A DNA stretch of 64,000 nucleotides from a virus: positions 1 to 64,000 of the IMG/VR virus record IMGVR_UViG_3300023179_000080; one strand, given 5' to 3'. A program made the translations under genes and the position numbers. Shown here piece after piece: positions 6,246 to 48,956 of this stretch; positions within the stretch are counted from its first letter, which is position 1; the number at the start of each line of letters is the position of its first letter. The notes beneath the pieces are model-generated. The model saw nothing but the letters and a program-made list of their open reading frames with translations. It was not told the DNA's origin and did not search any database.

Positions 6246-7352
6246 ATGACCACGATGTCCATCAAGACCTTCACCGCCGTCGCCAACAAGCTCCCCATCG
6301 AGACGTCGATTCTCCTCCGCGGACCGCACGGCATCGGCAAGTCCCAGGTGGTCCGCCAGCTTGCGGCCCAGTTCGGGCTCGAGGTGATCGACCGGCGCCT
6401 GTCGCAGATGTCGGAGGGTGACATGATTGGTCTGCCCTCGACCGACGGCGAGGTGACCCGCTTCAATCCGCCCGAGTGGTACAAGGCTGCGTGCCGCTCT
6501 CCCAGGTGCCTCTTCCTCGACGAGCTGAACCGTGCGACCCCCGAGGTCATGCAGGCAGCGTTCCAGGTCGTCCTCGACCGGGAGCTCAACGGCTGGAAGC
6601 TCCACCCGGCGACCCGTGTGTTCGCGGCGGTCAACGCCTCGGCGGCCTACACGGTCAACGAGATGGACCCGGCGCTGCTCGACCGCTTCTGGGTCGTCGA
6701 CCTCACCCCGACGGTGGCGGACTGGGTGACCTGGGCGAAGGACGGCCACGTGCACGACATGGTGGTCGACTTCATCGCCGGCAACGAGAAGTGGCTCGAC
6801 GCTCCCAAGGACTCCGAGCCCGGCAAGGTGACCCCGAGCCGCCGGTCGTGGGAGCGCCTGTCGGATGCACTCACCGTGGCAGGAATTGTGGAGGATCCCA
6901 AGCACGAGCTCTTCTACCCCATGTGCCTCGGATACGTGGGTACCGAGGCGACCATCGCCTTCCACTCGTTCGCCAAGACGATCGAGAACCAGGTGAGCGG
7001 TGAGGAGGTCCTCAAGGACTACGCCAAGTGCAAGAAGAAGGTCGCGAAGCTCGGCCAAGAGAAGCAGAACGTGCTCATCGAGAAGGTGTCGGAGTACGTG
7101 ACCAAGAGCCTGAAGACCCTCGACGAGAACCAGGGCAAGAACCTGGCTGCCTTCATGAAGGACCTCCCCGGTGAGCTCCGCGTGTCGGCGTGGTCGAAGC
7201 TCACCCAGGGCGCCGGCACGGACAACCTGGAGCTCGCCAAGAGCGTCCACAAGTACTGCGTCGAGACCGTCCTGGAGGTCTTCGGTGTGTCAGCGGATGC
7301 CGCCGTCAAGGCGATCTCGGCGACCGGAGGCAAGAAGGCTGCCAAGAAGTGA
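6246..7352 (+). CDS. MoxR-type AAA+ ATPase
   Basis: 368 aa. Walker A 'GPHGIGKS' (26-33), Walker B 'CLFLDELNRA' (about 88-97), sensor-1 region 'RVFAAVNAS', then 'LDRFWVVDL'. MoxR ATPases work as chaperones with VWA-domain partners. The likely partner here is the VWA/HExxH protein at 47652, about 40 kb away rather than adjacent. The C-terminal third is Lys-rich. Start ATG 6246 lies in a leader with GAGG; a second ATG follows three codons later. Confidence 0.9.
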   Translation: MTTMSIKTFTAVANKLPIETSILLRGPHGIGKSQVVRQLAAQFGLEVIDRRLSQMSEGDMIGLPSTDGEVTRFNPPEWYKAACRSPRCLFLDELNRATPEVMQAAFQVVLDRELNGWKLHPATRVFAAVNASAAYTVNEMDPALLDRFWVVDLTPTVADWVTWAKDGHVHDMVVDFIAGNEKWLDAPKDSEPGKVTPSRRSWERLSDALTVAGIVEDPKHELFYPMCLGYVGTEATIAFHSFAKTIENQVSGEEVLKDYAKCKKKVAKLGQEKQNVLIEKVSEYVTKSLKTLDENQGKNLAAFMKDLPGELRVSAWSKLTQGAGTDNLELAKSVHKYCVETVLEVFGVSADAAVKAISATGGKKAAKK

Positions 7353-7363
7353 AGGGGTGACCC

Positions 7364-7900
7364 GTGCAGGCATTCGACTCAACCTTGTGGATGGAACGTG
7401 CATGGGCGAGGTATACCCGGGCAGTCCGCCGCGGGGCAAAGAAGCCGAGCCTTGAACCCAGGTGGGCACGGGATGTCACTGCAATCGGAAACCTGGGCAA
7501 GCTGATCGAGTGGTGTGAGGGTCGAGGATTGCAGGTAAAGTTTGCCCGCCGGCCCAACGGCGGCTCATACGAGCATGATGAGAAGATCATCTACCTGTCG
7601 CACCGGGCAGGACCCGAGACCCAAGTGGCATACCTGCTCCACGAGTGTGGGCACCACCTCATCGGCATGAAGGAGCACCACGAGCGATTCGGCATGGGTT
7701 ACCCAAAGTCCGCGGATCCGAGCATTTCCAGGACGATGCTCCATCGGGTCGCAGTCCTCGAGGAGGAACTCGAGGCGTGGCACCGTGGGTGGCGGCTTGC
7801 GGAGCGACTGGGATTGTTCGTGTCCCGCAAGGTGTTTGATCGGATCCGCATGACCTGCATCAAGTCGTATGTGAGCTGGACACTGGGGAGGAGTAAGTAG
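7364..7900 (+). CDS. HExxH zinc-peptidase-like protein
   Basis: 178 aa. 'YLLHECGHHLIG' (about 88-99) is an HExxH zinc-binding motif; the downstream 'LEEELEAWHRGW' could supply the third ligand. This arrangement recalls small phage and ImmA-like metallopeptidases, but the substrate is unknown. GTG start 12 nt after the MoxR stop, preceded by AAGGGG. The next gene's start overlaps the stop by 1 nt. Confidence 0.75.
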   Translation: MQAFDSTLWMERAWARYTRAVRRGAKKPSLEPRWARDVTAIGNLGKLIEWCEGRGLQVKFARRPNGGSYEHDEKIIYLSHRAGPETQVAYLLHECGHHLIGMKEHHERFGMGYPKSADPSISRTMLHRVAVLEEELEAWHRGWRLAERLGLFVSRKVFDRIRMTCIKSYVSWTLGRSK

Positions 7901-8235
7901 TGAACGAGGGCAGAAAGATCATCGAAGACTCACTGTTCATGTCGATGGGTATCGCACCCATCCGCTGCGTCCCAGACGACATGAACAAGGTTCTGAACAA
8001 CCTGCCACCGGACGAGGTCCGGCGGATGAAGCGCAAGTTCAGGAAGTTGTGGCGCAAGTTCGCGAAGCACCCGCATGCGGCTGAGCCGAGGTCGGTCCAC
8101 TTGTGGGTGACCCAAGGTATGGGTCTGGGCGACCCAAGCCCGACGCGATCCGCAAAGGCAAAGCGGAAGGCCGAGGTCCTGCGCCGGGTCCGTAAGAAGT
8201 CGCTTGAGCTGACGGGTGGTAAACAAAGTTGGTAG
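7900..8235 (+). CDS. Hypothetical basic protein (111 aa)
   Basis: GTG start sharing a G with the preceding TAG. Strongly basic, especially 'RRMKRKFRKLWRKFAKHP' and the C-terminus ('AKAKRKAEVLRRVRKK'). May bind nucleic acid. Last gene of the three-gene MoxR unit; the promoter of the putative RNA at 8255 overlaps its end. Confidence 0.75.
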   Translation: MNEGRKIIEDSLFMSMGIAPIRCVPDDMNKVLNNLPPDEVRRMKRKFRKLWRKFAKHPHAAEPRSVHLWVTQGMGLGDPSPTRSAKAKRKAEVLRRVRKKSLELTGGKQSW

Positions 8236-8248
8236 ATGGGTGTACTAT
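8221..8248 (+). promoter_or_regulatory. Probable promoter of structured RNA
   Basis: CAAAGT (8224-8229), 13 nt, TACTAT (8243-8248); a slightly shortened version of the array promoter, overlapping the end of the preceding gene. No ORF follows. Confidence 0.5.
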
Positions 8249-8254
8249 GGTATC

Positions 8255-8432
8255 GTGTTCTAGTTATTAGTCTTGGTCCTCGCACTAGGGACCAACGTTA
8301 TGGGCAGATGCAGCACGGTGCGGTGACTTGCTCAGTATATATGGACAGGTGAACCATCCTGAGCATCAGGGATCAGTAACCGCCCAACGGGAGACAGGGA
8401 GATGAGAGACCCTGCTCCCGTTGAACTATTTT
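8255..8432 (+). ncRNA. Putative novel structured small RNA
   Basis: About 180 nt with no ORF, between a promoter-like element and a terminator-like hairpin. Three helices can be drawn: TTGGTCC 8273-8279 with GGACCAA 8289-8295; GCGGTGAC 8320-8327 with GTAACCGC 8376-8383 (one mismatch), enclosing TGCTCAG 8329-8335 with CTGAGCA 8359-8365 and ATGG 8341-8344 with CCAT 8354-8357; and the terminator stem 8385-8423. It does not match tRNA, tmRNA or a known riboswitch that I recognise. It could be a trans-acting phage RNA. Confidence 0.6.
8385..8432 (+). terminator. Intrinsic terminator-like hairpin
   Basis: CAACGGGAG (8385-8393) pairs with CTCCCGTTG (8415-8423), and CAGGG with CCCTG inside it, with one bulged A. 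Followed by AACTATTTTG, a weak T tract. Confidence 0.7.
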
Positions 8433-8441
8433 GCGGCCGGG

Positions 8442-8471
8442 GTGCAAAGTGACCCTCCCTCCTGGTAGAGT
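8442..8471 (+). promoter_or_regulatory. Array promoter, leaderless type
   Basis: GTGCAAAGT, 15 nt, TAGAGT, 6 nt, ATG 8478. Confidence 0.9.
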
Positions 8472-8477
8472 GTTCTC

Positions 8478-8774
8478 ATGGATAGCAATCCCTCCCCCAT
8501 CCTGGAAGAAGTGTTTGGCCCGTTCGCCGTCCCGAACTCGGACGAGGTGATCCCGGTCCGCGGCCTCGAGGTCCACCTCGGCAACGACTGGATTCCAATC
8601 ACGGCGGACGTGTGGCGGTCCTGGACCGGCCGGCGCCGGATCTGGGGGATCGAGCACCACGGGCCGGTGTACGCGGTGGGGACTCAAGACGAGAGCACCC
8701 CCTGGACCGGCGTACGGGAGTGCACATGTGCCACCTGCCAGGCCCACGTGGAGCCCACCCTAAAACCCAACTGA
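8478..8774 (+). CDS. Hypothetical protein (98 aa)
   Basis: Starts M-D-S-N-P-S-P-I-L-E; Trp-rich middle ('NDWIPITADVWRSWTGRRR') and 'ECTCATCQAH' near the C-terminus, which may bind zinc together with a nearby His. Function unknown. The promoter fixes the start. Confidence 0.75.
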   Translation: MDSNPSPILEEVFGPFAVPNSDEVIPVRGLEVHLGNDWIPITADVWRSWTGRRRIWGIEHHGPVYAVGTQDESTPWTGVRECTCATCQAHVEPTLKPN

Positions 8775-11615: not shown

Positions 11616-11771
11616 GGCGGGGGCGCCCCCCATCGCAGGGCCGGCAGAGGGGCTGTATACGGGGTGGGGGGCGCCCCTTCAGAGGGCCATCGGAGGGCAC
11701 TGCCATGCCGGGGGGCGCCCCCCATCAGAGTGGCCATCTGAGCCCCTATATGGGGGGCGGGCGCCCCCCCT
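11616..11771. repeat. Four GC palindromes with about 46-bp period
   Basis: G-run/GGCGCC/C-run palindromes are centred near 11624, 11672, 11716 and 11762 (spacings 48, 44, 46). The segments between them are also related: AGAGGGCCATCGGAG at about 11681 and AGAGTGGCCATCTGAG at about 11727. No gene. Iteron-like; could be a replication or regulatory locus. Confidence 0.7.
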
Positions 11772-25773: not shown

Positions 25774-26007
25774 ATGAACAAAGACGCTCTCAAAATTGCT
25801 CTGGCACTGGAAGCTTCTGCGCGGCTCGTCGAGTCGGGTCGCAAAGACGTGGAGGTCCATTTCACAGAAGCTGAAGTGTTGTGGAGCGCGGCAGAATCCT
25901 TGGGTCTCGAAAAGGTGGTCGACAGCTACCTCTTTGGCTGGCAGATGGAGTCACGTAAGGCTGATTGTACAAATGCCGGCGTCGTCCCTGCTTCAAACAT
26001 GAACTGA
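25774..26007 (+). CDS. Hypothetical protein (77 aa)
   Basis: M-N-K-D-A-L-K-I-A-L-A-L-E-A; helical start, then 'GRKDVEVHFTEAEVLWSAAE'. Unknown. After its stop, GTGCAAAGTTCGGCCGCTGAA resembles the first part of an array promoter cut off by the TnpB element. Confidence 0.72.
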   Translation: MNKDALKIALALEASARLVESGRKDVEVHFTEAEVLWSAAESLGLEKVVDSYLFGWQMESRKADCTNAGVVPASNMN

Positions 26008-26027
26008 CATGTGTGCAAAGTTCGGCC

Positions 26028-27205
26028 GCTGAATAACTTACGGCACAAGGCCGTAAGGTTCGAGGGTAGTCTTGCCTTCATCGACTTTACCCTTTAGGGA
26101 CTTCAGCTCGGATGATTGTGTCATCCTTCGGCCCTTCCTGCGAATCTCTTTCTTCACAGGATCGATCTTTGGGCGTAATGCGATGTTGAAAGCTGCATTT
26201 ACGTCCGCATGATCAATGTGTTCACAGTGCAAACAGTGAAACACTTTTCCATTTCTGCTCTCTTTATCAACTACTCCGCAACGAGAACATGAAGTTGATG
26301 TCCAAGCAGGATCAACAACATTCAACTCGACACCTTGCTCCTTAGCCTTGTAAGTGAGAAGCATTCTCACCTGATAGAATGGCCAAGAGTTCAAGGTGTG
26401 ATTTCCTTGTTTACGGTACTTCTTCGTACAATCTTTTCTAATCCCAGAAAGATCTTCTAGCTTAATTCCAACTCCACTTTTCTTTGCTTCTTTGACTATT
26501 TTAGTTGTGATCTTGTGAATCGCATCAGTCGTCTTCCTTCTCTCACGATCCTTGATCTTCTTCAGCTGTGACCACTGCTTCTTCTCTTGCAGGTTCTGCC
26601 TGATATTCTTATACTTCTTCTTCAAGAAAGGAATCTGTTTTCCAAACTTCTGAACCTTGCCTGTAAGCGGATTTGCCACAACAATGGAGTGAGAAGTTGA
26701 GTTAAGATCGATGCCGATGAAACTTTTAGGTTCATCGGCCTGTTGATCGGGGAAAGTCACGGAAACATAAGCCCATTTCTGATCAATCTCGACTTGATTG
26801 AGTTTTGTCCAACCAGAAGGAAACCAACAGCGAAATTCTGCGTTGAGGCTTGGAATTCTTATTTTTCTAGTTTCTAGATCAAACTTTAGATTTTGACCAG
26901 GAACAGTTAGCTTCACTCTCTTCGGGTTGATTGATTTGATCTTCTTGTTCAGTCCATATTTTCTAACGATCTGATTAGCAATCTCAGATTTTAGGCCAAT
27001 GTGTTTGACGACTTTTGTTGAGACAAGACCATTTTCAAGAGCAAACTGCGCAACTTTAACTGCCTTCTCAAAGAGAGAAGAATCAAAGTTCACACCATGC
27101 TTTACCTTGAACGTCTTGATCATCTCCATGATAAGTATCTTTACTTAAGAAAAATTTTAACAAAAATTCATGATATGGCACAAGGCCGATATCCTTTCTT
27201 TTTGT
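26028..27205 (-). mobile_element. IS200/IS605-type element, TnpB only
   Basis: About 1.18 kb. Ends are assigned by comparison with the scar at 19769-19811. Subterminal hairpins: left end GATAT(C)GGC-CTTGT-GCCATATC (27193-27172), right end CTTACGGC-CTTGT-GCCGTAAG (26057-26037), both with loop CTTGT. No TnpA (HUH transposase). TTTAC lies just outside the left end, a tetranucleotide-type target context. A/T-richer than its flanks, consistent with recent arrival. Confidence 0.88.
26038..27129 (-). CDS. tnpB: TnpB RNA-guided nuclease
   Basis: 363 aa. RuvC residues are intact: D141 in 'IGIDLNSTSH', E225 in 'IKLEDLSGI', D309 in 'DHADVNAAFN'. Zinc-finger cysteines are 'CSRC' (281-284) and 'CLHC' (299-302). 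TnpB proteins cut DNA guided by an omega RNA derived from the right end of the element. The stop codon lies within the right-end hairpin, so the RNA would overlap the 3' end of the gene and read into flanking phage DNA. A second ATG is two codons in. Confidence 0.93.
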   Translation of the reverse strand: MEMIKTFKVKHGVNFDSSLFEKAVKVAQFALENGLVSTKVVKHIGLKSEIANQIVRKYGLNKKIKSINPKRVKLTVPGQNLKFDLETRKIRIPSLNAEFRCWFPSGWTKLNQVEIDQKWAYVSVTFPDQQADEPKSFIGIDLNSTSHSIVVANPLTGKVQKFGKQIPFLKKKYKNIRQNLQEKKQWSQLKKIKDRERRKTTDAIHKITTKIVKEAKKSGVGIKLEDLSGIRKDCTKKYRKQGNHTLNSWPFYQVRMLLTYKAKEQGVELNVVDPAWTSTSCSRCGVVDKESRNGKVFHCLHCEHIDHADVNAAFNIALRPKIDPVKKEIRRKGRRMTQSSELKSLKGKVDEGKTTLEPYGLVP

Positions 27206-27248
27206 TGATGTGTAAAGCATAGTGTGGGACCTCAGGGTGGAAAATGTG

Positions 27249-28118: not shown

Positions 28119-29336
28119 ATGATAGCGATTGTGAAGGACGGGCGCCGGCCCATCAAGATGTGGGTCGAGGGTGTTCCTGTCGAAGAGCAGGCCGTACAGC
28201 AGCTCGAGCGGATTGCAGCTCTTCCCTTCGTCGGCCCGCACGTGGCAGTGATGCCCGACGTGCACCTGGGCAAAGGCGCGACGGTGGGCTCTGCGGTCCC
28301 GACGTCGGGTGCGGTGGTGCCCGCGGCGGTCGGAGTCGACATCGGCTGTGGGATGATCGCCGTGCGCACGTCGATGACGTCGCACGATCTGCCTGATGAC
28401 CTGTCGGGCCTGCGATCGGCGATCGAGGCCGCGGTTCCCCACGGTCGAACGGACGACGGAGGTCGCCACGATCGAGGCCGGTGGGGTGACGTGCCTGACA
28501 CGGTGGCTTCGGTTTGGACGGACCTCCAGCCCGGTTGGCAGCGGATCCTCGAGAAGCACCCGAAGGTCCACGGCCGGTCGGGAGTCACGGCGGAGCACTT
28601 GGGCACGCTGGGGACGGGCAACCACTTCATCGAGCTGTGCCTCGACGAGGCTGACCGCGTCTGGGTGATGCTGCACTCGGGCTCGCGAGGGGTGGGCAAC
28701 CGCATCGGCTCCTACTTCATCGAGCGTGCGAAGGAGGAGATGAAACGGTGGTACATCAACCTGCCCGACCAGGACCTTGCTTACCTGCCCGAGGGCTCGC
28801 AGCTCTTCGGAGACTACGTTGAGGCGGTGGGTTGGGCTCAGGAGTACGCATCTGCCAACCGCCAGCTCATGTTGGCGGCTGCCGTCCGCGCGATGAAGGG
28901 CCACCTCCGGCCCAAGTTCGACCTGACGGACGATGCGGTGAACTGCCACCACAACTACATCTCCAAGGAGCACCACTTCGGCGAGAACCTGTGGGTGACG
29001 CGGAAGGGTGCCGTGTCGGCACGCGCCGGCCAGATGGGCATCATCCCGGGTTCCATGGGAACGCGGTCGTACATCGTCCGGGGCAAGGGCAACGCGGACT
29101 CACTGTGCTCGTGCTCGCACGGTGCGGGTCGCCGGATGTCCCGAGCAGAGGCACAGCGGACGTTCACGCTGGCGGACCACCGTGCTGCCACGGAGGGTGT
29201 CGAGTGCCGCAAGGACCGCGAGGTGATCGACGAGACGCCCGCCGCGTACAAGGACATCGATCAGGTGATGGCAGCGCAGGCCGACCTCGTCGAGGTCGTG
29301 CACACGCTCAAACAAGTGCTCTGCGTGAAAGGCTGA
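28119..29336 (+). CDS. rtcB: RtcB-type RNA ligase
   Basis: 405 aa. 'AVMPDVHLGKGATVGSAVPT', 'GVDIGCGMIAVRT', 'LGTLGTGNHFIEL', 'MLHSGSRGVGNRIG', 'DAVNCHHNY' and 'CSHGAGRRMSR' are the metal-binding and guanylylation motifs of RtcB, the His in 'CSHGAGR' being the nucleotidyl acceptor. RtcB joins RNA ends carrying 2',3'-cyclic phosphate or 3'-phosphate to 5'-OH, using GTP and Mn. In a phage it may repair tRNAs cut by host defence nucleases. The cyclic-phosphate receiver at 40229 fits that theme. Confidence 0.96.
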   Translation: MIAIVKDGRRPIKMWVEGVPVEEQAVQQLERIAALPFVGPHVAVMPDVHLGKGATVGSAVPTSGAVVPAAVGVDIGCGMIAVRTSMTSHDLPDDLSGLRSAIEAAVPHGRTDDGGRHDRGRWGDVPDTVASVWTDLQPGWQRILEKHPKVHGRSGVTAEHLGTLGTGNHFIELCLDEADRVWVMLHSGSRGVGNRIGSYFIERAKEEMKRWYINLPDQDLAYLPEGSQLFGDYVEAVGWAQEYASANRQLMLAAAVRAMKGHLRPKFDLTDDAVNCHHNYISKEHHFGENLWVTRKGAVSARAGQMGIIPGSMGTRSYIVRGKGNADSLCSCSHGAGRRMSRAEAQRTFTLADHRAATEGVECRKDREVIDETPAAYKDIDQVMAAQADLVEVVHTLKQVLCVKG

Positions 29337-37871: not shown

Positions 37872-37881
37872 ACTGATCATT

Positions 37882-37971
37882 GGAACGGTGTCCGAGTGGT
37901 CGAAGGAGCACGATTGGAAATCGTGTATGCGGTGACGAATCGCATCGAGGGTTCGAATCCCTCCTGTTCCG
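37882..37971 (+). tRNA. tRNA-Ser (anticodon GGA)
   Basis: Class II: acceptor GGAACGG/CTGTTCC, anticodon loop TTGGAAA between CGAT/ATCG, long variable arm, T-stem GAGGG/CCCTC. Discriminator G. Confidence 0.93.
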
Positions 37972-38074
37972 CCCTAGGCAGGGGCGCATTCCCTGTCAGC
38001 ATGCAAAACAATACTTATTGAAGGTGAAATCTCCCATGCGCGGGAGAAAGTAACCACCTCTTTATGAGCCAAAC

Positions 38075-40988: not shown

Positions 40989-41324
40989 ATGAAGAAGAAC
41001 AACAAGAAGAACTCCAATCGCTCTTACAACGTAACTTTCGATCTACCAGACATTGTCGACATGGAAACTCTCTCCTACGCGGGTGATGACGAGTTGAGTC
41101 GAAGGCTCGCACACCTCAACGGTGAAAAAGAGCAAGTCCAGAACGAAGGGTACGACGCCAAGCTCTGGGAAGTCGAGATCGCGTACGTGCAGAGAGAGTT
41201 GAAGATCAGGAACGCTCGTCGGGTTGCTCATGATGAATACCTCAAGGCGAATCCCGAGCCCAACTACTACGAGCTTACTTACGTTCCAAACTATGACGAC
41301 GGACCTGCTGATGCCTTCAACTGA
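40989..41324 (+). CDS. Hypothetical protein (111 aa)
   Basis: [13 protein letters not shown]. Central charged helix ('[20 protein letters not shown]', '[20 protein letters not shown]'). Unknown. Precedes the sigma factor gene. Confidence 0.7.
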
Positions 41325-41334
41325 AGAGGCCGTT

Positions 41335-42159
41335 ATGCGACCAACGAAGGTTAGCACAGTTTCTCAACAGTCACCCGCACAAGTCGACACGATCAGCACA
41401 TACTTGAAAGAGCTGAAAGTGTATCCACAGCTGAAACACCCTGAAGTTGTTAGCCTCTTTCAGGCCTATGAAGCAGGGGGAACTGAGGGTGATAAGGCAA
41501 GAAAGAAGCTGGTTGAGTCGAACCTCCGACTTGTGATCTCGATCGCAAAAAAGCAGAAGGGGCACAACATCCCTCTAGAAGATCTAATCCAGGAGGGCAA
41601 CCTGGGACTCCTCAAGGCTGTCGAGCGTTTCGACTGGAAGAAGGGGTTTAGGTTCTCCACTTACGCGACGTGGTGGATCAAGCAGGCCATCAGTCAACAC
41701 GTTCTGAAGCGGAAACGAATGATCCGTCTCCCAGCCCACGCTGCAGGAATCCAGCGTAAGCTGATGCAGGCTTCAAAGGAGTTCCGCGATACCAACGGTT
41801 CAGATCCGACTCAAGACGAGCTTCTGAAGCTTGTCGACGCGTCTGAAACTGTCGTCAAGGCAACGATCGCGTCCAGCAACAACGTTGTTTCTCTTAGCCA
41901 AACTGTCACTTCTGATCCAGATAGCGGTACTTTGGGTGACAGGCTTGAAGACATTGATCACCGGAATGATCCATTTTATAATGTTTCTTCTAAGGAATTG
42001 CTTGGTATTGTCAAGTACGTGCTATCCACTCTTACTGAGAAAGAAGCTGCAATTTTGAAGTTGAGATTCGGAATTTTTGATGAAGACATTGATCGATCAC
42101 AATACATGTTGACGGCTGAAGACACTGCTCAGCTTGAAGCGGGCACGTTGCATGATTGA
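41335..42159 (+). CDS. Sigma-70-type factor lacking region 4.2
   Basis: 274 aa. Region 1.2/2.1 '[20 protein letters not shown]', region 2.2-2.4 '[20 protein letters not shown]' and '[20 protein letters not shown]', region 3 '[20 protein letters not shown]', region 4.1 '[20 protein letters not shown]'. The -35-reading helix-turn-helix of region 4.2 is missing; the protein ends in an acidic tail. It should bind core polymerase and read -10 DNA. Start 41335 chosen from AAGAGG 5 nt upstream; ATG 41311 is possible. Confidence 0.92.
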
Positions 42160-47651: not shown

Positions 47652-48956
47652 ATGATGACACCTTGTGACACCGAGTTCAATCTCGACCGGCACCTCATCT
47701 CGTTCCTACAGGACAACCCGTTCTTTGCGGAACTGAGCCGCCACATCCACAAGTCGCCCACCAAGTCGATCCCGACGGCGGCAGTTGCGTTCAACGAGAA
47801 GACCGACGAGCTCACCCTCTGGTGGAATCCCGAGTTCTTCGGCAAGCTGTCCCAGTGGGAAGTCCGTGGCGTGCTCACCCACGAATTCTACCACCTCGTG
47901 TTCGGCCACCTGTACGGCCGCCGGCGCAATCCGCCCAAGCTGTGGAACGTGGCGACCGACCTGGCCATCAACTCGATCATCATGGGATCTGCCAAGAACG
48001 GCAGCCGCCTCGATGGCGATCGCCCGCTTCCCGAGTTCTGCCTCATGCCCGGCGTGATGCCGAAGCATCCGGAAGGCCGCGATTACACCGACGAGGAGAA
48101 GTCGGCGATGCCGCTCGCGGCGGTGATCGCGAAGCTCCCGACCATGCAGGCGTCGGAGTGGTACTTCGACAAGATCAAGCAGGAAATGCAGGACCAGCCC
48201 GACAACGGCATGGGCCAAGGCGAGGGCAGCCTCGACTCGATGGACGACCACAACGGTTGGGACGAAGTCCCGGACGAACTCCGCGAGTACGTGGAAGGCA
48301 AGGTCAAGTCGATCGTCGAAAAAGCGGCGAAGCACGCCGACTCGCAGGCGAACGGCTGGGGTAACATCCCGGCGGACATGGTCGACGCAATCCGCAAGTC
48401 GGTGTCGTCGGTCATCAACTGGCGCAATGTGCTACGCCAGTTCGTCGGTTCGCTGGTCCGCGGCGGCCGTAGCACCTCGATCAAACGCATCAACAAGCGT
48501 TACCCCTACATCCACCCGGGAGTGAAGCGTGGCTACGAGGCGAAGCTCCTCATTGCGATCGACCAGTCGGGCTCGGTGAGCAACGAGATGCTCGCAGAGT
48601 TCTTCGCGGAGCTCGGGTCCCTCACCAAGAAGGTGACGATCGACGTCCTTCCGTTCGACTGCGAGGCCCATGACAAGGACATCTACACGTGGCGCAAGGG
48701 TGCGAACATCCCGGGCAAGCGAGTCCGCGGCGGCGGCACGGACTTCAACGCTCCCACTCGACTCGCCAACGATCCCAAGAATCGAGGCCGGTGGGACGGA
48801 TTTTTGTGTCTCACGGATGGGGAAGCTTCTGCGCCTATTCCTAGCCGAATTAAGCGGGGGTGGGTCCTTGGCAAAGGTTGTAAACTGCTCTTCAAGACGG
48901 ACGAGATTCAGGTCCACATGACGGACCAGAAGGCCGCAGAGGGTGCCTGGCGCTGA
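47652..48956 (+). CDS. VWA-domain HExxH metallopeptidase-like protein
   Basis: 434 aa. HEFYH (77-81, in 'VLTHEFYHLVFGH') is a zinc-peptidase motif; 'LIAIDQSGSVSNEMLAEFF' (about 301-318) is a VWA MIDAS (D-x-S-x-S). This combination (DUF2201 type) typically pairs with a MoxR ATPase, here probably the one at 6246. Such pairs are thought to remodel metal- or protein-complexes; phage role unknown. Two ATGs at the start; the first fits the promoter. Confidence 0.88.
   Translation: MMTPCDTEFNLDRHLISFLQDNPFFAELSRHIHKSPTKSIPTAAVAFNEKTDELTLWWNPEFFGKLSQWEVRGVLTHEFYHLVFGHLYGRRRNPPKLWNVATDLAINSIIMGSAKNGSRLDGDRPLPEFCLMPGVMPKHPEGRDYTDEEKSAMPLAAVIAKLPTMQASEWYFDKIKQEMQDQPDNGMGQGEGSLDSMDDHNGWDEVPDELREYVEGKVKSIVEKAAKHADSQANGWGNIPADMVDAIRKSVSSVINWRNVLRQFVGSLVRGGRSTSIKRINKRYPYIHPGVKRGYEAKLLIAIDQSGSVSNEMLAEFFAELGSLTKKVTIDVLPFDCEAHDKDIYTWRKGANIPGKRVRGGGTDFNAPTRLANDPKNRGRWDGFLCLTDGEASAPIPSRIKRGWVLGKGCKLLFKTDEIQVHMTDQKAAEGAWR

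What the first reader, a model, noticed from the sequence alone, without database searches (positions are those of the whole stretch)
8255..8432. Candidate novel structured RNA between two genes
No ORF in about 200 nt, a promoter-like TACTAT upstream, three drawable helices including a nested one (8320-8383) and a terminator-like hairpin (8385-8423). It sits next to the MoxR unit in an otherwise gene-packed region.
Basis: partly seen in the sequence, partly recalled or inferred. Interest (0 to 1): 0.75.

Follow-up and report, generated by a model that had tools for sequence, protein, structure and literature searches.

The report
Pseudoknotted phage RNA beside tRNA genes
The gap at 8236-8477 holds a real, previously uncatalogued small structured RNA that large phages carry in one or two copies, either behind one small basic protein gene or wedged among tRNA genes, and whose fold (not the one first drawn) is supported by matching base changes across relatives.

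Summary
Relatives from public viral and metagenomic contigs hold the same RNA at the same place, directly after a small basic protein gene (orf111) and before a strong hairpin. A model built from seven relatives, without the window, finds this site (E 0.0038) and a second copy in the window at 37999-38059 (E 0.0005), right behind a tRNA-Ser gene. The conserved fold is GGUGA-hairpin-AGUAACC, closed by GGU/ACC with a GA/AGUA internal loop. The hairpin loop pairs with an upstream strand (a pseudoknot). All five hairpin pairs change on both sides (covariation 0.60 against 0.15 shuffled, 0/500). Exchanging loops between relatives destroys the pseudoknot signal (0/20000). At least 18 records carry it, several twice; some copies lie 4-5 nt before tRNA-Lys(UUU). 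No Rfam family matches. Best explanation: a trans-acting small RNA whose 3' end is made by a terminator at one locus and by tRNA processing at the other; its target is unknown. The nearest known kind is the tRNA-island phage RNAs GOLLD and ROOL, which are unrelated and far larger.

The parts
7900..8235 (+). orf111, small basic helical protein gene (invariant RKFRK.WR), the upstream neighbour of every locus-1 copy of the RNA
   Evidence: AlphaFold pLDDT 90.3, all helices, no PDB match
8243..8248 (+). TACTAT, -10-like, off-consensus for this phage; promoter not shown
   Evidence: relatives such as L083 leave only about 10 nt between the orf111 stop and the first hairpin
8273..8295 (+). P0 hairpin TTGGTCC/GGACCAA (8273-8279 with 8289-8295); hairpins of different sequence at this place in several relatives
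   Evidence: sequence, folds; not tested by a formal covariation count
8307..8311 (+). K, GATGC, upstream strand of the pseudoknot (pairs with 8363-8367)
8348..8381 (+). Core: GGTGA (8348-8352), helix P 8356-8359/8370-8373, loop with K' GCATC 8363-8367, AGTAACC (8375-8381); outer helix 8348-8350/8379-8381
   Evidence: alignments A10 and A12; found by model R2 built without the window
8385..8423 (+). Terminator-like hairpin CAACGGGAG.CAGGG / CCCTG.CTCCCGTTG, followed by AACTATTTT
   Evidence: a hairpin follows the core in all 14 locus-1 copies examined
8446..8471 (+). Phage promoter of the next gene (AAAGT-N15-TAGAGT)
8478..8774 (+). orf98, next gene, with its own promoter
37881..37974 (+). tRNA-Ser(GGA), 49 nt upstream of the second copy's GGTGA
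37999..38059 (+). Second copy of the RNA core: GGTGA 38023-38027, P 38030-38035/38042-38047, AGTAACC 38049-38055; K either GCATG 37999-38003 or GCGCAT 37984-37989
   Evidence: (E 0.00054, held out)

Best explanation
The gap encodes a small noncoding RNA of a new family. Its core is a hairpin closed by GGU/ACC with a GA/AGUA internal loop (the sequence signature of a bulged-G or loop-E motif), and the apical loop pairs with an upstream strand, making a compact pseudoknot. Shown by comparison: the fold, its conservation, two copies in this genome, and its two settings (locus 1: after orf111 and before a terminator-like hairpin; locus 2: in tRNA clusters, in one subset between tRNA-Ser and tRNA-Lys). 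Inferred: the RNA works in trans. The same core is kept while its 3' boundary is supplied by an intrinsic terminator in one setting and by the 5' end of a tRNA, hence RNase P cleavage, in the other, so the released RNA is what matters. It is probably made with orf111 or with the tRNA transcript. Its likely partner is a protein (orf111 is the nearest candidate) or the translation/tRNA machinery during infection; which one is a guess.
For: Synteny after orf111 in L072, L074, L082-L085, L088, L090-L092, L095, L096, L102 and L019. Model R2 without the window finds both window copies, E 0.0038 and 0.00054 in 573 kb. Covariation: 90.4% of cells paired against 62.8% shuffled, score 0.597 against 0.147 (0/500), slid versions at most 0.318; 24-sequence version 0.668 against 0.168. 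The outer pair changes from G-C to U-A/U-G, and P pairs change between C-G, G-C, A-U and U-A. Pseudoknot: own-loop score 295 against a permuted mean of 214.9 (sd 16.5), 0/20000. tRNA setting: AACC ends 4-5 nt before tRNA-Lys(UUU) in L125-L127 and L019. Held-out copies L125 (E 1e-7) and L019 (7.9e-5) found by R3. No match at E<=0.001 in 100 genomes of the same phylum as one carrier.
Against: No expression data. A conserved aptamer-like fold followed by a terminator is also how riboswitches look. The promoter is weak. orf111 occurs without the RNA (L002, L007, L071, L076, L077, L081), and L003/L004/L008 carry the RNA with no orf111 hit, so orf111 is not an obligate partner. E-values are rough: R3 also gave a coding false positive at E 0.013.
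Confidence: 0.55

Rival explanations
1. A cis-acting riboswitch or attenuator: the pseudoknot senses a ligand or a protein and sets read-through of the hairpin behind it into downstream genes.
For: In locus 1 the core is followed within a few nt by a strong hairpin, with a U-rich tail in several relatives. The short K/K' helix could compete with other pairings.
Against: The next gene has its own phage promoter right after the hairpin in the window, and the gene behind it differs between relatives (orf98, orf128-like or others). In the tRNA setting there is no terminator but a tRNA. No antiterminator pairing was seen by eye.
Confidence: 0.2
2. A processing element of tRNA transcripts (leader or spacer that guides RNase P or another nuclease, or a self-cleaving RNA), with the orf111-linked copy a displaced relative.
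For: Constant 4-5 nt between AACC and tRNA-Lys in L125-L127 and L019; copies about 87 nt behind tRNA-Lys in L003, L004 and L008, and 49 nt behind tRNA-Ser in the window. The phage has the RNA ligase RtcB.
Against: At least 13 locus-1 copies have no tRNA directly next to them, yet keep the fold. Most phage tRNAs in the same clusters lack it.
Confidence: 0.15
3. A decoy or protector against host defences that act on tRNA-Lys, carried together with a replacement tRNA-Lys(UUU).
For: The neighbouring tRNA is Lys(UUU) in L003, L004, L008, L019, L125, L126, L127 and L129. That anticodon nucleases attack tRNA-Lys is general knowledge, not tested here.
Against: No resemblance of the core to a tRNA-Lys anticodon arm was noticed (not formally tested); no defence gene was examined; tRNA-Lys is common in phage clusters.
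Confidence: 0.06
4. Not a functional RNA: a chance hairpin in a non-coding gap.
For: Window energy is only moderately unusual.
Against: Homologues, covariation and synteny as above.
Confidence: 0.03

Closest known systems
GOLLD and ROOL RNAs (phage and prophage RNAs near tRNA islands; PMC12286853)
   Same: Encoded by phages near tRNA genes, structured with pseudoknots (stated for ROOL), function unknown.
   Different: GOLLD often exceeds 800 nt and both form RNA nanocages (PMC12286853). This RNA has a core of about 60 nt and a gene of about 170 nt, and no Rfam match.
T4 species 1 and 2 RNAs (rnaC, rnaD)
   Same: Small stable RNAs of 119-139 nt at the end of a phage tRNA cluster, directly beside a tRNA gene.
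   Different: Sequences show no GGUGA/AGUAACC core; R3 has no match in the T4 genome.
Ocean-VII RNA (RF03092)
   Same: Shares TGAG[C/T]ATCAGGGATCAG, 16 of 17 bases.
   Different: The Ocean-VII hairpin is missing here; 19.7 bits against a gathering score of 53.5. Those bases form the variable P/K' part and are not conserved in true relatives. Judged coincidence.
Pseudoknotted riboswitches with a following terminator (e.g. fluoride riboswitch, PMC11077080)
   Same: Aptamer-like pseudoknot followed by an intrinsic-terminator-like hairpin.
   Different: The gene behind has its own promoter; tRNA-embedded copies have no terminator; no Rfam riboswitch matches.

Membership tests
Ocean-VII (RF03092) | 17-nt conserved strand, then a 6-bp hairpin, then AGAC, score at or above 53.5 bits | tested here: not met
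   19.7 bits, hairpin absent
GOLLD / ROOL | Match to the Rfam covariance models, large size | tested here: not met
   No such match in the window or 14 relatives at gathering scores, nor at E<=5 on the locus; the RNA is far smaller
T4 species 1/2 RNAs | Sequence and structure similarity to rnaC or rnaD | tested here: not met
tRNA or tmRNA | Cloverleaf or tmRNA found by ARAGORN or Rfam | tested here: not met
Known riboswitch classes | Match to a curated aptamer model | tested here: not met
Riboswitch in general | Ligand-dependent control of a downstream gene in cis | not testable with these tools
   Needs ligand and reporter assays
Self-cleaving ribozyme | Site-specific self-cleavage | not testable with these tools
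   Needs in vitro assay; no known ribozyme model matches
Loop-E / bulged-G motif | GA(A)/AGUA internal loop between two helices | tested here: inconclusive
   GUGA and GUAAC are invariant in the 17-sequence alignment; the non-canonical pairs themselves cannot be tested by covariation
Intrinsic terminator (8385-8423) | G+C-rich stem followed by a U tract | tested here: inconclusive
   Stem very strong but the tail here is AACTATTTT; U-rich tails in L088 and L091

The most novel reading that the evidence does not exclude
A new class of pseudoknotted phage RNA with its own biochemical role in taking over translation or tRNA metabolism, for example a ribosome- or tRNA-enzyme-binding RNA or a new tRNA-linked ribozyme, kept in two copies per genome in a broad group of large phages.
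Probability: 0.3. Interest if true: 0.9.

Novelty: new variant of a known kind. Interest (0 to 1): 0.74.

Why it matters
Why large phages carry tRNA clusters, and what the unexplained RNAs among them do (T4 species 1/2, GOLLD, ROOL), is a long-open question. This family is small, has a fold fixed by covariation, comes in two settings within one genome, and often sits beside the same tRNA (Lys UUU). It can be made in vitro, probed, crystallised, pulled down with orf111 or ribosomes, and deleted, so the question becomes directly testable.

Tried and rejected
1) DNA-level searches for the window RNA in INPHARED, 16 relatives and about 1 Mb of loci found nothing; a model from the window sequence alone also found nothing. 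It took protein-guided relatives and position to find homologues. 2) Ocean-VII lead: pursued because of E 0.0014, then rejected. Of 13 IMG/VR hits to its 17-mer, 5 were true Ocean-VII and 8 were not. The GGTGA..AGTAACC hit in those Ocean-VII contigs (L021, L024, L027) is not supported by R2 or R3 and is left out. 3) L006 gap between two promoters: it seems to code a short protein and folds no better than chance. 4) L034 and L077 pattern hits and the R3 hit in LR756504 (coding) are chance. 5) T4 rnaC/rnaD: not similar. 6) P0 and P2 hairpins: present by eye, but register varies and no formal covariation was made; P2 in the window is doubtful. 7) orf111 structure: confident helical model, no PDB match, so it says nothing about RNA binding beyond its basic charge.

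Full report
WHAT IS IN THE SEQUENCE. The window is part of a 74,283-base virus record whose relatives are records of up to 340 kb. Between orf111 (7900-8235) and orf98 (8478-8774) there is no + strand ORF of 40 aa or more. The phage uses a promoter GTGCAAAGT-N15-TATAGT (20 exact sites of the pattern AAAGT-N15-TANNGT, 0.16 expected), and one such promoter (8446-8471) drives orf98. The hairpin 8385-8423 is among the strongest in 64 kb.

FINDING HOMOLOGUES. Searches with the RNA sequence failed. Looking instead at the same gene neighbourhood in relatives found with the MoxR-like, peptidase and orf111 proteins, I saw in L072, L074 and L019 a shared string GGTGA - hairpin - AGTAACC at the place where the window has its gap. 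A pattern scan then showed it in L003, L004, L005, L008 and L011, and a second time in the window at 38023, and later in L082-L085. A second wave, L088, L090-L093, L095 and L096, includes the variant TGTGA...AGTAAC(G/A/T), and L102 has GGTGA...TGTAACC.

INDEPENDENT TEST. Model R2, built from seven relatives and none of the window's sequence, finds the window at 8322-8385 (E 0.0038) and 37999-38059 (E 0.00054) in 573 kb, and also L082, L102 and L072. R3, built from 17 sequences, finds held-out copies L125 (1e-7) and L019 (7.9e-5). In whole records it matches 19 of 30 at E<=0.1, of which I count 18 as convincing, and about half of those hold second copies. It has no match at E<=0.001 in 100 genomes of one carrier's phylum. 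Its E-values are rough: a hit at E 0.013 in a 636-kb phage lies in coding sequence.

THE FOLD. In the 17-sequence alignment, 90.4% of cells pair (62.8% after shuffling), the covariation score is 0.597 (0.147 shuffled, 0/500), and sliding the partner drops it to 0.318 or less. All five pairs of helix P show changes on both sides; the outer first pair changes from G-C to U-A or U-G. With 24 sequences aligned by the model the score is 0.668 against 0.168 (this alignment leans towards the structure). The unpaired GA and AGUA between the two helices are conserved, the signature of a bulged-G (loop-E) motif by general knowledge of RNA motifs. The loop of P pairs with a segment upstream: w8348 GATGC/GCATC, L074 GGTCCA/TGGACC, L072 CGGTCG/CGACCG, L019 GAGGTT/AACCTC, L003-L008 TGTGG/CCACA, L090 GGCAG/CTGCC, L096 GCGGAG/CTCCGC, L126 GTTCCTT/AAGGAAC. 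It usually starts 36-45 nt before GGUGA, or 21-24 nt in the short tRNA-linked form. Dealing loops out among 20 representatives never reached the observed sum (295 against 214.9, sd 16.5; 0 of 20,000).

TWO SETTINGS. Locus 1: orf111 - RNA - strong hairpin - next promoter or gene (window, L072, L074, L082-L085, L088, L090-L092, L095, L096, L102). Locus 2: tRNA clusters. In L125-L127 the RNA lies between tRNA-Ser(UGA) and tRNA-Lys(UUU), with 5 nt from AACC to the tRNA-Lys start; L129 has the same arrangement. L019 has orf111 - RNA - 4 nt - tRNA-Lys(UUU), which links the two settings. L003, L004 and L008 have the core about 87 nt behind tRNA-Lys(UUU). The window's second copy lies 49 nt behind tRNA-Ser(GGA); a gene starting MPTYEYKCE follows, as a similar reading frame follows in relatives. 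orf111 itself is a small basic helical protein with invariant RKFRK.WR and no structural match.

HOW IT LIKELY WORKS. The same core is kept whether its 3' side is a terminator-like hairpin or a tRNA. The simplest reading is that the free RNA matters and that termination or RNase P makes its end; it would then act in trans. This step is inferred. A cis riboswitch fits the locus-1 anatomy but not the tRNA setting or the downstream promoter; a tRNA-processing element fits locus 2 but not locus 1. The target is not known; orf111, ribosomes and tRNA enzymes are the first candidates.

COMPARISON WITH THE KNOWN. No Rfam family reaches its threshold on the RNA in the window or in relatives (the only matches in those stretches are tRNAs and group I introns elsewhere), and relaxed searches show nothing related. 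The 17-base match to Ocean-VII lacks that family's hairpin and lies in bases that vary among true relatives. By kind it resembles GOLLD and ROOL, phage RNAs of unknown function near tRNA islands (PMC12286853), and T4 species 1/2 RNAs, but it is not homologous by any test made here. Full-text searches brought up no paper that describes it, but the library lacks most subscription journals and I read only one of the hits.

VERDICT. Real structured RNA: about 0.95. New family relative to Rfam 15: about 0.9. Trans-acting small RNA: about 0.55.

Noticed in passing
window, about 35 sites, e.g. 4411, 4923, 8446, 8783, 9200, 17768, 24491: A phage promoter GTGCAAAGT-N15-TATAGT whose -10 often ends about 6 nt before the ATG, so many mRNAs look leaderless; a sigma-70-like factor is encoded at 41224-42159.
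   Followed up: partly
25989-27206: TnpB-like gene on the minus strand (26038-27129, PF07282) with the strongest fold of the tiled scan at its 3' end (z -4.5), a possible guide-RNA region, and end hairpins sharing GGCACAAGGCC.
   Followed up: no
28119-29336: RtcB RNA ligase gene, 64% identical to that of Pseudomonas phage pf16.
   Followed up: no
47652-48956 and 6246-7352: DUF2201 metallopeptidase/VWA-like protein that may pair with the MoxR-like ATPase.
   Followed up: no
L125 371-557; L128 411-595: Group I introns upstream of the tRNA-Ser - RNA cluster in relatives.
   Followed up: no
11620-11769: Alternating GGGGGGCGCCCC-type inverted repeats at about 45-nt spacing.
   Followed up: no
31151, 60254, 27057 (178-nt windows): Other strongly folding windows on the + strand (z about -4), not examined.
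   Followed up: no
L021 8195-8243 (- strand): Marine contig with true Ocean-VII also holds AUGCUGGUGA...AGUAACCAGCAU, a similar internal-loop arrangement in another context; not supported by the models, possibly chance.
   Followed up: partly
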